Assembly: GCF_023544715.1 (NCBI RefSeq)
Contig: NZ_JAMJEZ010000016.1
Coordinates: 1-51,871 of the forward strand
DNA: 51,871 nt
Direction of reading: 5' to 3'
Source of the DNA: Pseudomonas eutrophicaquae
Lineage (GTDB): Bacteria; Pseudomonadota; Gammaproteobacteria; Pseudomonadales; Pseudomonadaceae
Shown piece after piece: positions 154-51,833 of this stretch; position 1 is the stretch's first letter, and the number at the start of each line of letters is the position of its first letter. The translations under genes were made by a program, and so were the position numbers. Under the pieces are notes generated by a model that saw nothing but the letters and a program-made list of their open reading frames with translations, was not told where the DNA came from and searched no databases.

Positions 154-807
154 ATGCCCACGACGCCGCCCCATCACCCCCTGCAAGACCTGCCGCTCGA
201 GCAATTGCTGGCCTGTCATGACTGCGACCTGTTGCTGCGTCGGCCGGTGCTGGGCGTCGAGCAGAAAGCGCGCTGTCCTCGCTGTGGCTGCGAGCTGTTT
301 GCTCAACGTGCGCAGGTGCAGCGACGTAGCCTGGCACTGGTGCTGACTGCACTGCTGCTGTTCATCCCGGCCAACTTCTTGCCGATCATGCAACTGGAGT
401 TGCTCGGTCAGCGCCGTGAAGAAACCGTCTGGAGCGGGGTCCTCGGGCTGTATTACGGTGAGATGCAGGTCGTGGCACTGGTGGTATTTCTCTGCAGCAT
501 GGTGATCCCGCTGCTCAAGCTGCTCTGTCAGCTGGCGGTCCTGCTCTGTATCCAGTGGCGCATGGCGCGAGGCTGGGGGCGCGGGCTCTATCGCGCCTAC
601 CATCACCTGCGCGAGTGGGGCATGCTCGAGGTCTACCTGATTGGCATCCTCGTCTCCATCGTCAAGCTGGTCGATATGGCTGATTTGCGTGTCGGCGTGG
701 GACTGTTCTGTTTCATCGCTCTGCTGCTGGCCCAGATATGGCTGGAGGTCAGCATGTCGCCACAACAGATCTGGGCGGCACTGGAGGATGAGCATGCGCG
801 CCCTTGA
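154..807 (+). CDS. pqiA: PqiA/LetA-family inner membrane protein (first of two single-domain proteins)
   Basis: This 217-residue integral membrane protein has one PqiA domain. A cytoplasmic zinc-ribbon-like head carries two CxxC pairs (Cys21/Cys24 and Cys41/Cys44). About four membrane segments follow, the first containing the family motif IPANFLPIM. E. coli LetA and PqiA have two such domains in one chain; here each domain is a separate protein, and the second is encoded by the next, overlapping gene. The role inferred from the family is to work with the MCE protein encoded downstream in moving lipids between the inner and outer membranes. The 3' end overlaps the next start by 14 bases, so translation is probably coupled. 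Family assignment is firm; substrate is unknown. Confidence 0.88.
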   Translation: MPTTPPHHPLQDLPLEQLLACHDCDLLLRRPVLGVEQKARCPRCGCELFAQRAQVQRRSLALVLTALLLFIPANFLPIMQLELLGQRREETVWSGVLGLYYGEMQVVALVVFLCSMVIPLLKLLCQLAVLLCIQWRMARGWGRGLYRAYHHLREWGMLEVYLIGILVSIVKLVDMADLRVGVGLFCFIALLLAQIWLEVSMSPQQIWAALEDEHARP

Positions 808-35293: not shown

Positions 35294-36145
35294 TTAGCGG
35301 CGCTGCTGGACCACGCCGTTCAGGCCATTGGTCCCCAGCTGGCGCTGGGCGCTGTCGGCCTGCTGGCGGTTGCCGAACGGGCCGACCACCACGCGGTGCC
35401 AGGTCCGGCCATTGACCTGCCCGGATTCGATGCGGGCATCCTGACCGATCAAGAGCAGCCGTGCGCGGGTACTTTCCGCCTGCTCGCGGGTACTGAACGC
35501 GCCGGCCTGCACCACAAAGCGCTGATTGCTGCTGGCGGGGGCGGCCGCTGGGGCGGGCGGCGGTGCCGCTGGGCGTGCCGGTGGCGGAGCCGGGGGTGGT
35601 GGTGCCGGGCGCGCGGGCGGCGGGCTGACCGGGACCGGTGGCGGGCGCACCGCTGCCACGCTCGGCGCGGGGCTTGCCGGCGGGGCGGTTGTGATGCTCG
35701 GCGCCGGTGCGGGTGTCACCGGCAGCGGTGCGGCGGCCGGGGCGGCTGGCGCGGCCGCGGGCAGTGGTGGCGGGGTGCGGCCTTCGAGCAGCGCCTGGGC
35801 ACGTGCGGCATCCAGCGCGCGCAACTGTTCGGGTGTCGGTGCCGGCGTGCTGGGCGGTTGCTGGCGCTGCGGCGGGTTGTTGACCTGCGACTCCTGCAGC
35901 AGCTTGTAGAAATCGTAGCGGGCCGCAGGCGGCTCGCTGGCGGTCTGCGCCGCCGGGGCACTTGCGCGCTTGGCCGCGCTCGGCTCCTCGCGGCCCGGCT
36001 CCAGCTGATAGAGGAAGGACGCGAAGGCGGTGATCACCGAGCCGATCCCCAGCCAAGCCCAGGGCGGCAGCGTGCGGCGTTGCGGCGCCGCCGGCTGGGG
36101 TCGGCTGGCGCCCCGCGGGCGTGACTTGTGCTTGCGGTTCGCCAT
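35294..36145 (-). CDS. SPOR-domain cell-division protein (FtsN-like)
   Basis: A 283-residue bitopic protein: a short basic cytoplasmic tail, one transmembrane helix (about 28-47), a low-complexity Pro/Ala-rich linker (about 90-205), and a C-terminal SPOR domain (about 208-283) with [18 protein letters not shown] and [20 protein letters not shown] domains bind denuded glycan at the septum. Layout and the place next to argS match the pseudomonad FtsN-like protein, but FtsN's essential membrane-proximal motif cannot be confirmed by eye. It starts 4 bases after the argS stop. Confidence 0.86.
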
Positions 36146-36149
36146 GGGC

Positions 36150-37958
36150 TTACATGCGCTCCAGCGGGCTCAGGCCGAGCAGTTCCAGACCCTGCTTGAG
36201 GGTGCGACCGGTCAGCGCAGCGAGGCGCAGGCGGCTCTGCTGCACGGCGGCCTCTTCGGCGGCGAGGATCGGGCAATGCTCGTAGAAGCTGGAGAACAGC
36301 CCGGCCAGCTCGTACAGGTAGCTGCACAGCACATGGGGCGTGCCCTTGGCGGCCACGGCGTTGACCACCTCGGCGAACTGAGCGAGCTTGGCGGCCAGCG
36401 CCTGCTCGTGTTCGGCTTGGATGGTGATCCGTCCTGGGAGTGCGTCGCTGATCTGTTTGTTCAGTTTGCGGAATATGCTGTGGATTCGGGTAAGTGCGTA
36501 CAGGAGATAGGGTGCAGTGTTGCCTTCAAAGCTGAGCATCTGCTCGTAGTTGAATATGTAGTCACTGGTGCGGTGCTTGGATAGATCTGCGTACTTAACT
36601 GCTCCAATACCTACCGCTTTTGCAATTTCCTTAATGTCACTTTTTCCCATGACGGCAGGTGGAGGGGACTTTTCACGAGAGTGTTCGTGACCAAGTTGCC
36701 CGTTTTGAACAACCGTTTTGGGGTTTTTGGTTCTAAGTACTGCTTCTGCCTTTGCCTCGGCCTCGTCGAGCAGGTCGATCAGCTTGACGGTGCCGCCGTC
36801 GCGGGTCTTGAACGGCCGGCCATCGGCGCCGTTCATGGTGCCGAAGCCCATGTGCTCCAGCTCCATGCCGGCGTGGACGAAGCCGGCGCGGCGCGCCACC
36901 TCGAAGGCCATCTGGAAGTGCAGGGCCTGGCGCTGGTCGACGAAGTACAGCACCCGGTCGGCCTTGAGGGTCTGGCTGCGATAGCGCATCGCCGCCAGGT
37001 CGGTGGTGGCGTACAGGTAGCCGCCATCGGCCTTCTGCACGATCACCGGCAGCGGCTTGCCCTCGGCGTTCTGGTACTCGTCCATGAACACGCACTGCGC
37101 GCCATCGCTCTCGCTGAGCAGACCTTTGGCCTCCAGCGCGGCAACGATCTGCGGCAGATCGGCGTTGTAGGCGCTTTCGCCGCGCACATCCGCCGGGCCG
37201 AGCTGCACGCCCAGACGGTCATAGACCTCCTGGCAGTGGGAGAGGGAAATCTCGTTGAAGCGCTGCCACAGGCGCCGGCATTCGGGATCGCCAGCCTGCA
37301 GCTTGACCACCAGGCCGCGGGCGCGGTCGGCGAAGCCTGCGGATTCGTCAAAGCGTTTCTTGGCGGCGCGGTAAAAATGTTCCAGATCGCCGAGGTCCGC
37401 GGCGCTGTCCACTGGCTGATCCTGCAGGAAGGCCAGCAGCATGCCGAACTGGGTGCCCCAGTCGCCGACATGGTTCTGGCGGATCACCTCATCGCCGAGA
37501 AAGTCCAGTGTGCGGGCCACGGCGTCACCGATGATGGTCGAGCGCAGGTGACCGACGTGCATTTCCTTGGCGAGGTTTGGCGAGGACAGATCGACCACCA
37601 CGCGCTGCGGCGCTTCCGCTTTGGTGACCCCGAGTTTGGAATCAGCCAGCGCCGCTTCCAGACGCTCGGCCAGGGCGTCGCTGTTCTGGAAGAAGTTGAG
37701 AAAACCGGGGCCGGCAATCTCCACCTTGCTCACCGACGGATCGGCGGGCAGCGCGGCGATCAGCTGCTCGGCCAGCTCGCGCGGCTTGCGCCCAGCGGGC
37801 TTGGCCAGCATCAGGGCGATGTTGCTGGCGAAGTCGCCGTGGCTCTTGTCCTTGGTGTTTTCCACCTGGATCGCCGGCGTCAGTCCCTCGGGCAGCACCC
37901 CCTCGGCGGTCAGGCGGGTCAGGGCTTGCTGGATCAGGTGGCGAATGCTGTCTTTCAT
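36150..37958 (-). CDS. argS: Arginyl-tRNA synthetase (mosaic allele)
   Basis: A 602-residue class I synthetase. It has the Add-1 N-terminal domain, the HIGH-equivalent HVGH (134-137 in [15 protein letters not shown]), [22 protein letters not shown] in the KMSK-equivalent region and the anticodon-binding C-terminus from about 470 ([23 protein letters not shown]). I recall Pseudomonas ArgS as about 587 residues. The extra length is in residues 410-440, a Lys/His/Pro-rich stretch. Residues about 404-513 are encoded by DNA with much lower GC and atypical codons such as AGA, CTA, ATA and AAA. The frame is intact, so the protein is presumably active. The start at 37958 begins [13 protein letters not shown]. 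Confidence 0.95.
36421..36750. other. Low-GC recombinant segment inside argS
   Basis: A hand count over 36421-36720 gives 146 of 300 G+C (about 49%), while the adjoining 36781-36840 has 42 of 60 (70%). The change is abrupt near 36750 and more gradual near 36420. The reading frame continues and conserved ArgS motifs are kept, so this is replacement by homologous DNA rather than an insertion of unrelated sequence, apart from the extra Lys/Pro-rich residues 410-440. Confidence 0.8.
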
Positions 37959-37996
37959 CGGTGAGCTCTTGGCGGGCACTGCGTGAAAAACCGCAG

Positions 37997-50571: not shown

Positions 50572-50695
50572 GCGCGCCAAGCCAAACAAGCTGCTGATTC
50601 TGGGGCCGATCAGGATTCGACGCCGGTAACAAAACTTGAGGGGCATGCCGAGTGGGTAACAGAACTCGTAAATCCACTGTTACAACTTTATAGTT

Positions 50696-50728
50696 GCCAA
50701 CGACGACAACTACGCTCTGGCGGCTTAA
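50696..50728 (+). CDS. tmRNA proteolysis tag peptide
   Basis: The resume codon GCC opens a ten-codon frame that reads ANDDNYALAA and ends in TAA. This is the tag I know from Pseudomonas. The terminal ALAA is the ClpXP/ClpAP recognition signal. It is translated only after the ribosome switches from a broken mRNA. Confidence 0.95.
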   Translation, partial: ANDDNYALAA

Positions 50729-50918
50729 TGCCCCAGCAGTCTCTAGGGGATGCCTGTAAACCCAAAAAGACTGTCAGATAGAACAGGATCGTCGCCAAGT
50801 TCGCTGTAGACGTAACGACTAAAACTTATACAGCTCGCCCAAAGCACCCTGCCCGTCGGGCGGCAATGGGTTAACTCAATAGACTGGGATAAGCATGTAG
50901 AACCGATAGCGGAGAGCT

Positions 50919-50953
50919 GGCGGACGGGGGTTCAAATCCCCCCGGCTCCACCA
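50919..50953 (+). mobile_element. Probable attachment site (attL) in the ssrA 3' end
   Basis: The 3' end of ssrA, from the TPsiC arm through CCA, is the usual core of tyrosine-recombinase attachment at this gene. An integrase gene begins 112 bases downstream in the same direction. This is the geometry of islands or prophages integrated at ssrA. The matching attR copy lies outside the window, so the core length cannot be set. Confidence 0.6.
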
Positions 50954-50965
50954 TCACAAGCGCAG

Positions 50966-50986
50966 AGCCCCGGATTCCGGGGCTTT
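50966..50986 (+). terminator. Terminator after ssrA
   Basis: AGCCCCGG-ATT-CCGGGGCT, an 8-bp perfect stem followed by TT, lies 12 bases after the tmRNA CCA. It probably terminates ssrA transcription. If the island boundary lies at the CCA, this terminator is island-derived. Confidence 0.75.
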
Positions 50987-50997
50987 GTGCTATCTGG

Positions 50998-51076
50998 ACC
51001 TGCCATTTTCGGCAGGTGCGCCACTGACAGGTCACACCGACGTGGGGCATCGACAGGTGCCCAGTATGAAACCTGC
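50998..51076. repeat. Cluster of CAGGT/ACCTG repeats before the integrase gene
   Basis: Five copies of the motif CAGGT or its complement occur in 79 bases: ACCTGCC at 50998 and 51070, GGCAGGT at 51011 (the first pair also forms a 7-bp inverted repeat around ATTTTC), and ACAGGT at 51027 and 51053. Their place between attachment site and integrase suggests arm-type integrase or excisionase binding sites. Function is inferred. Confidence 0.5.
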
Positions 51077-51833
51077 CCCTTCCTACCTGACCCGGAACCG
51101 CCACGGAACCTTCTACTTCCGCATGGTGATCCCTGCCCCGTTGCGCCCGCTGGTCAACGGCAAGCGAGAGGTCCGGCGCTCCCTGAAAACTGATAGCCAA
51201 AGGCTGGCACTCAAGCGTGCCCGGTTGCATGCTGTGCGGTTCGAATCAGTCTTTGACAGGGTGTTGGCTGTGGTTTCGCGAGACGATGATGTAGAGCTGT
51301 CCCTTAAGTATGCGGATGACCTGGACCTGCTGGAGCTGCAGACCTCGGGAGGCTACGGCAGCCCGCCAGAGTCGAAAGCAGAGCCGGAGCCAGCGCTTAC
51401 CGATGCCGAGCTAGAGGAGCGCCAGCGCCAGCACTGCATTGCCGAGCTACTGGAAGGCAGGTACGACCGCCCAATTCGGCCAGAGCTTGACCCGCTCGCA
51501 CAGAAGCTGCTGGAGCTTTCGCGCTCCTACCAGCCGACCGAGCTGCGGCAGGTGTTGCCCAGACTACGGGATGAACTGGTGAAGGCCAGCCTTGTACCTG
51601 CTGGGGCTGTAGCCGTAGCGGAGCAAGCGGCAGCTGCGAAGCCCAGCTATGACCCGGAGATGGCGGGGTGGACGCTGTACCAGGTGTGGGAGCACAGGTT
51701 GGCAGGCTTAAGGGCTGACCCATCCCAAGAGGGCGGGGAAGCGGATCATGCCGGCTCTTGGGAGCGGGCGGAGCGCGCTGCCCGTGCCGCCACAGTGAAC
51801 CGCCCCGGCTTTCCCGGAGGCTCCAACCTTTGA
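51066..51833 (+). pseudogene. Tyrosine-type site-specific integrase, 3' end lost to an IS insertion
   Basis: The first residues (MKPAPSYLTRNRHGTFYFRM, then VNGKREVRRSLKTDSQRLALKRARLH) match the DUF6538 N-terminal domain of tyrosine integrases. A charged linker and the start of a core-binding domain follow. The frame then runs into IS sequence at about 51796: the last residues VNRPGFPGGSNL are the translated IS terminal repeat, and a stop follows at 51831-51833. The catalytic Arg-His-Arg-Tyr domain is missing, so the protein should be inactive unless the remainder lies beyond the IS. It sits directly downstream of ssrA in the orientation expected for an integrase acting at that site. Confidence 0.8.

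What the first reader, a model, noticed from the sequence alone, without database searches (positions are those of the whole stretch)
36421..36750. argS carries a low-GC recombinant patch: a mosaic housekeeping synthetase
About 330 bp inside argS has about 49% GC by hand count (146 of 300 over 36421-36720) against 70% in the flank at 36781-36840. Codons that high-GC pseudomonads avoid (AGA, CTA, ATA, AAA) are concentrated there. The frame is intact and ArgS motifs continue, so this looks like homologous recombination with DNA from a distant, lower-GC donor. The patch codes for residues about 404-513, at the catalytic/anticodon-domain junction, and includes extra residues about 410-440 rich in Lys, His and Pro. 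The gain could come from a neutral gene conversion, or from selection, for example to evade an ArgS-targeting antibiotic or toxin.
Basis: partly seen in the sequence, partly recalled or inferred. Interest (0 to 1): 0.7.

Follow-up and report, generated by a model that had tools for sequence, protein, structure and literature searches.

The report
Foreign patch inside arginyl-tRNA synthetase gene
An essential enzyme gene in a Stutzerimonas-like bacterium carries a sharply bounded stretch of about 340 letters, with a 22-amino-acid insert, that looks imported from an unknown lower-GC relative and still codes for a working-looking enzyme.

Summary
A two-breakpoint fit against the closest relative, G003, puts the tract at 36417-36755, minus strand, ArgS residues 409-521: divergence 0.359 inside, 0.087 outside. 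No 339-base stretch elsewhere in the window has GC as low. It is the strongest internal GC3 dip among 326 ORFs in 452 kb of the genome. The 22-residue insert is in none of 178 other argS genes; the 8 other same-genus genomes searched lack the tract. The frame is open; 26 of 28 strongly conserved residues are kept.
Best explanation: a tract imported by recombination after the split from G003, its insert in a disordered loop. No donor was found (best protein segment 78%). Foreign descent rests on composition, codon choice and sharp edges, not on a tree: AU tests reject neither placement with the genus (p 0.54) nor outside the family (p 0.58). 'Distant donor' is thus only partly supported; evasion by selection has no evidence. 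Unexplained: divergence beyond the transformation range I read of, and an excess of changes to A on the coding strand.

The parts
36150..37979 (-). argS, arginyl-tRNA synthetase, 609 codons as an ORF from GTG; the likelier start is the ATG at residue 8 (about 37958)
   Evidence: TIGR00456 546.9 bits against a cut-off of 261.65; Pfam tRNA-synt_1d, DALR_1 and Arg_tRNA_synt_N; one match in the genome; M8 and K9 invariant in 27 aligned proteins
36417..36755 (-). divergent low-GC tract, residues 409-521
   Evidence: two-breakpoint fit, same ends against 4 of 8 genus members; the other 4 put the 5' end at 36755-36756 and end the tract at 36597 or 36618; GC 0.484
36651..36716 (-). 66-base in-frame insert, about residues 422-443, not in the 178 other argS genes examined
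   Evidence: predicted disordered, pLDDT under 50 at 423-441
36756..36794 (-). native sequence just upstream of the tract (codons 396-408), a possible recombination anchor
   Evidence: identical to G003 over these 13 codons
36150..36506 (-). DALR anticodon-binding domain, residues 492-609; its first 30 residues lie in the tract
   Evidence: PF05746 residues 492-609

Best explanation
In this Stutzerimonas-like lineage an internal stretch of argS that is 270 bases long in G003 was replaced by a 339-base homologous tract from an unsampled, lower-GC gammaproteobacterium, probably of the order Pseudomonadales. Shown: sharp edges, alien composition and codon choice, an insert, absence in sampled relatives, an open frame and kept conserved residues. 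Inferred: entry by natural transformation, with the highly conserved codons just outside and within the tract acting as anchors, so that only this piece was converted. The insert sits in a flexible loop between two helices, so the mosaic enzyme should still charge tRNA-Arg, and the event was most likely neutral.
For: Sharp change in divergence, 0.359 inside and 0.087 outside. Low GC and GC3 in the tract alone within the gene. Codon identity at shared residues 26/57 against 299/362 and 73/81. Flanks pair with G003 at 100* support with an end branch of 0.092, while the tract has an end branch of 0.98 in a tree whose median end branch is 0.08. Absent from the 8 other same-genus genomes; insert absent from 178 argS genes. 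26 of 28 residues conserved at 95% or more, and 37 of 40 at 90% or more, are kept. One argS and no second copy of the tract in the genome. A ComEC domain gene is present. Codon usage fits best the argS of three Pseudomonas species with argS GC 0.54-0.56.
Against: AU tests do not exclude that the tract belongs with the genus (p 0.54), and the free tree puts it inside Pseudomonadaceae in an unresolved group of 47 rows. 36% divergence exceeds the range, up to about 23%, in which transformation was measured in Bacillus subtilis (PMC6382021, passages). The codon signature (GCA for 9 of 11 Ala, NNC for 18 of 21 two-fold pyrimidine codons, no TTA/TTG among 9 Leu) has no match for GCA among 178 argS genes, whose maximum is 0.39. 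The two halves differ in GC3, about 0.32 and 0.67. Retention of conserved residues, 26 of 28, is at the low end: the median of the relatives is 1.0, with six of 178 lower. mutS, a barrier to divergent exchange, has an open frame over its cut-off.
Confidence: 0.74

Rival explanations
1. In-situ change: the tract diverged in this lineage by a local, strand-biased burst of mutation plus a 66-base insertion, under selection for a working enzyme.
For: Against G003 the tract gained A at 52 sites and T at 15 (flanks 25 and 39). Among 38 low-GC3 relatives the A share is at most 0.65, median 0.51, against 0.78 here. Gaining A under purifying selection would by itself give GCA, GAA and AAA while keeping NNC codons (inference). 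Placement of the tract protein with the genus is not rejected.
Against: 97 changes in 270 aligned bases plus an insert, bounded at two places, needs an unknown targeted mutator. 21 swaps between G and C (G>C 12, C>G 9) do not fit a pure A-gain process. An A share of 0.75 or more also occurs in 10 of the 155 relatives with at least 15 gains of A or T, so the bias alone is not unique.
Confidence: 0.1
2. Assembly artefact: sequences of two organisms were joined inside a conserved gene.
For: The genome is a 57-contig draft and reads are not available here; the 5' edge abuts conserved sequence.
Against: It needs two joins 339 bases apart in the same gene, both in frame, with conserved residues kept, from an organism unlike any found in the searches; reported contamination 0.01%.
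Confidence: 0.08
3. Two-step import: a whole lower-GC argS or a mobile copy was acquired, converted the native gene over this tract, and was then lost.
Against: No second argS or tract remnant in the genome; no close argS in plasmids, phages or viral contigs.
Confidence: 0.06
4. Selected replacement: the tract or insert protects ArgS from an inhibitor, toxin or selfish element.
For: An unusual event in an essential gene; the tract covers part of the anticodon-binding domain.
Against: The insert is a predicted disordered loop at a length-variable linker; most of the catalytic-domain match (107-428) is native; the native G003 allele has no spacer-like exact match in the genome among those listed.
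Confidence: 0.02

Closest known systems
Mosaic genes made by natural transformation with divergent DNA (Bacillus subtilis: PMC13344027 and PMC6382021, passages read)
   Same: Short donor segments inside otherwise native DNA; at about 15% divergence the integrated pieces were 130-340 bases long (PMC6382021), the length of this tract; a ComEC domain gene is present here.
   Different: Donor identity there is about 90% (PMC13344027) or divergence up to about 23% (PMC6382021), and at 17-23% the pieces averaged 3-4 bases; here 339 bases differ by 36% where they align.
Homology-facilitated illegitimate recombination in transformable Pseudomonas stutzeri (Meier and Wackernagel 2003, seen only as a reference and in a citing passage)
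   Same: Same or a close genus; foreign DNA enters beside a homologous anchor.
   Different: That process joins heterologous DNA at a few bases of homology on one side; here the tract is homologous argS in register apart from the insert.
Mosaic penA alleles of Neisseria (PMC10926701, abstract start in a listing only)
   Same: Interspecies replacement of part of a gene.
   Different: There commensal donors and drug resistance are reported; here neither donor nor selection is known.

Membership tests
Arginyl-tRNA synthetase (argS, TIGR00456) | Score over the curated cut-off and the three ArgS domains | tested here: met
   546.9 bits against 261.65; three Pfam domains; residues 33-609 align with E. 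coli-type ArgRS 4oby residues 25-578 (organism recalled)
Arginyl-tRNA synthetase (argS, TIGR00456) | Conserved residues kept within the tract | tested here: met
   26 of 28 residues conserved at 95% or more; R410K and Y496L differ; relatives keep a median of all 28
Recombinant mosaic gene | Two sharp breakpoints with different divergence inside and outside | tested here: met
   2*dLL 57 to 119 against 8 of 8 genus members; 4 of 8 give the full tract, 4 only its first half
Recombinant mosaic gene | Tract absent from sister lineages | tested here: met
   0 of 8 other same-genus genomes; insert in 0 of 178 argS; strains of the same species not available
Recombinant mosaic gene | Tract and flanks have significantly different phylogenies | tested here: inconclusive
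   Tract end branch 0.98 with no sister, 118 of 179 argS used; AU p 0.54 for placement with the genus and 0.58 outside the family
Recombinant mosaic gene | Identified donor with a near-identical sequence | tested here: not met
   Best protein segment 78% over 63 residues; best over residues 434-516 is 73%; no closer match
Natural transformation as the route | Competence in this strain | tested here: inconclusive
   ComEC domain present; the rest of the machinery and competence itself not tested

The most novel reading that the evidence does not exclude
A local, strand-biased rewriting process acted on a 339-base stretch of an essential gene (gain of A on the coding strand, 52 against 15 gains of T) and added 66 bases while selection kept the enzyme working. 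It would be a targeted mutagenesis without a known counterpart rather than an import.
Probability: 0.06. Interest if true: 0.85.

Novelty: new member of a known kind. Interest (0 to 1): 0.42.

Why it matters
If the import reading is right, recombination can place a tract about 36% diverged, with an insertion, into an essential single-copy gene in a wild bacterium. That lies beyond the range measured in the transformation studies read here. It gives a concrete junction and allele to test how such exchange happens, and warns that an argS tree built on whole genes can mix two histories. If it is in-situ change instead, it would point to an unknown local mutator.

Tried and rejected
Donor in another order or class: no class or order genome searched matches the tract better than the best Pseudomonadaceae do (best E 9e-33 in the family; 1.8e-28 outside it in the order; 2.5e-25 outside the order in the class). 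An Aeromonas DNA match (75.5%) was set aside because over the same bases the 178 argS genes have a median of 0.77 and a maximum of 0.83. Second argS or repeat in the genome: only weak short matches. Viral, phage or plasmid source: nothing close. Self-targeting escape: the native G003 allele used as query against the window's genome gave, apart from argS itself, only short matches, the strongest 44 bases at 80%; CRISPR arrays were not examined. Loss of mismatch repair easing divergent exchange: mutS has an open frame over its cut-off; mutL was not tested. Simple deamination: 53% of tract changes are transversions. Literature: seven searches showed no report of this mosaic argS in their listings; most subscription papers are not held.

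Failed or repeated work: one search used wrong start positions, stopped with an error, and was replaced. Part of the alignment printed was cut (rows between L065 and L080); the insert count rests. redrew a class set of the same size with the same matched genomes but for the centre, and added nothing. Structure comparison was not available; no other fold library was tried. The AlphaFold model used 27 argS proteins, mean pLDDT 80.3; loops outside the insert are also low (380-396, 469-474). Tree and AU tests used quick trees with LG+G4, no mixture model.

Full report
Setting. The window is a whole contig (C7) of a 2.55-Mb, 57-contig draft, 99.85% complete and 0.01% contaminated. One same-genus genome (G004) has a contig of the same length, 715,868 bases, as the Stutzerimonas stutzeri K1 record found (one search gives the G004 contig length), so the genus is inferred to be Stutzerimonas. 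argS lies on the minus strand at 36150-37979, next to an SPOR-type ORF and hslVU (these names by eye and recall, from the ORFs). It scores 546.9 bits to TIGR00456 (cut-off 261.65) and is the only argS match in the genome.

The observation. No 339-base stretch clear of the tract has GC as low. GC3 is 0.50 in the tract against 0.87 in the rest of the gene. argS is first of 326 ORFs in a 452-kb sample (20 stretches plus the window, about 18% of the genome) for an internal GC3 drop. In the 119 argS loci, which include the window's own gene twice and some duplicates, no other locus drops by more than about 0.07 in GC3 over these columns, by my reading of the table. The window's other low-GC stretch, near 50.4-50.9 kb, holds rpsT (by eye) and the tmRNA gene.

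Edges. A two-breakpoint likelihood fit against G003, the closest relative, gives 36417-36755, residues 409-521, with divergence 0.359 (97 of 270 aligned bases) inside and 0.087 outside (2*dLL 118.8). Four of eight genus members give those same ends; the other four agree on the 5' end to within a base but end the tract at 36597 or 36618, because its second half is less diverged. The 13 codons before the 5' edge are identical to G003. At residues shared with G003 the codon is also identical at 299 of 362 positions upstream, 26 of 57 in the tract (3 of 18 in its first part, 23 of 39 in its second) and 73 of 81 downstream.

Relatives. The 8 other same-genus genomes have argS without the tract, at 68-70% identity over the part that aligns. 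Across 178 other distinct argS genes the linker that is 40 residues in the window (406-445) holds at most 26 and mostly 18 residues, so the insert of about 22 residues is unique in this set; shorter inserts at the same linker occur in some family members (L005, L006, L016, L017).

Donor hunt. Matches to the tract were found in 394 of 399 family, 176 of 390 order, 42 of 369 class and 9 of 9 genus genomes (window's own included; the sets overlap). Phages, plasmids and viral contigs gave nothing close. The protein keeps the family's state at 4 of 5 sites where Pseudomonadaceae differ from the others, and codon usage is closest to argS of three Pseudomonas species at argS GC 0.54-0.56. That suggests a lower-GC Pseudomonadales donor, but the tree cannot decide. 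On 91 columns the tract has an end branch of 0.98 and falls in an unresolved group of 47 Pseudomonadaceae rows, and AU tests reject neither placement with the genus (p 0.54) nor outside the family (p 0.58).

Function. The tract runs from the end of the catalytic-domain match (107-428) into the DALR anticodon-binding domain (492-609). 26 of 28 residues conserved at 95% or more are kept; relatives keep a median of all 28, and six of 178 keep fewer than the window does. The AlphaFold2 model (mean pLDDT 80.3) puts the insert between helices 400-418 and 446-466 with pLDDT under 50 at 423-441, so a tolerated loop is the simplest reading. No evidence bears on drug or toxin evasion.

Mechanism and what remains odd. 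A ComEC domain gene and mutS are present. In B. subtilis, transformation falls steeply with divergence: at about 15% the integrated pieces were 130-340 bases, at 17-23% mostly 3-4 bases (PMC6382021, passages). Mosaic outcomes with many short segments are common with a donor at about 90% identity (PMC13344027, passages). A 339-base tract at 36% is outside that range, so either conserved anchors sufficed in a rare event, or several steps were involved. The tract also shows a strong excess of changes to A on the coding strand (52 against 15 to T; flanks 25 against 39), beyond each of 38 low-GC3 relatives (maximum share 0.65, here 0.78), though 10 of 155 relatives with enough changes also reach 0.75. 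Its codon signature (GCA 9 of 11 Ala, NNC 18 of 21, no TTA/TTG among 9 Leu) is matched for GCA by none of 178 argS genes. This may reflect an unsampled donor with strong strand asymmetry; it is also what keeps an in-situ process from being excluded.

Verdict. A real, sharply bounded, functional-looking mosaic tract, most likely imported, of a known kind but with an unusually diverged and unidentified source.

Noticed in passing
window 36417-36755: Changes relative to G003 gain A 52 times and T 15 times on the coding strand, and codon usage combines GCA Ala with NNC codons and no TTA/TTG; none of 178 argS genes has so high a GCA share.
   Followed up: partly
window 50602-50953 and 50985-51833: A tmRNA gene (tag ANDDNYALAA) is followed at once by an integrase-like ORF at the contig end, the usual layout of an island inserted at ssrA; integrase name by eye, from no search.
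   Followed up: no
L221:5832-7403 (G000 contig C6): A 523-residue ORF resembling Cas8e/CasA by eye, GC3 0.70 with an internal dip to 0.47; suggests a type I-E CRISPR system.
   Followed up: no
window genome G000: The genome is 2.55 Mb at 99.85% completeness while the eight other same-genus genomes are 3.2-4.7 Mb: it looks like a reduced genome for this genus.
   Followed up: no
window 35294-36145: The SPOR-type ORF (name by eye) next to argS has a very proline/alanine-rich middle with GC up to 0.82 in 300-base windows.
   Followed up: no
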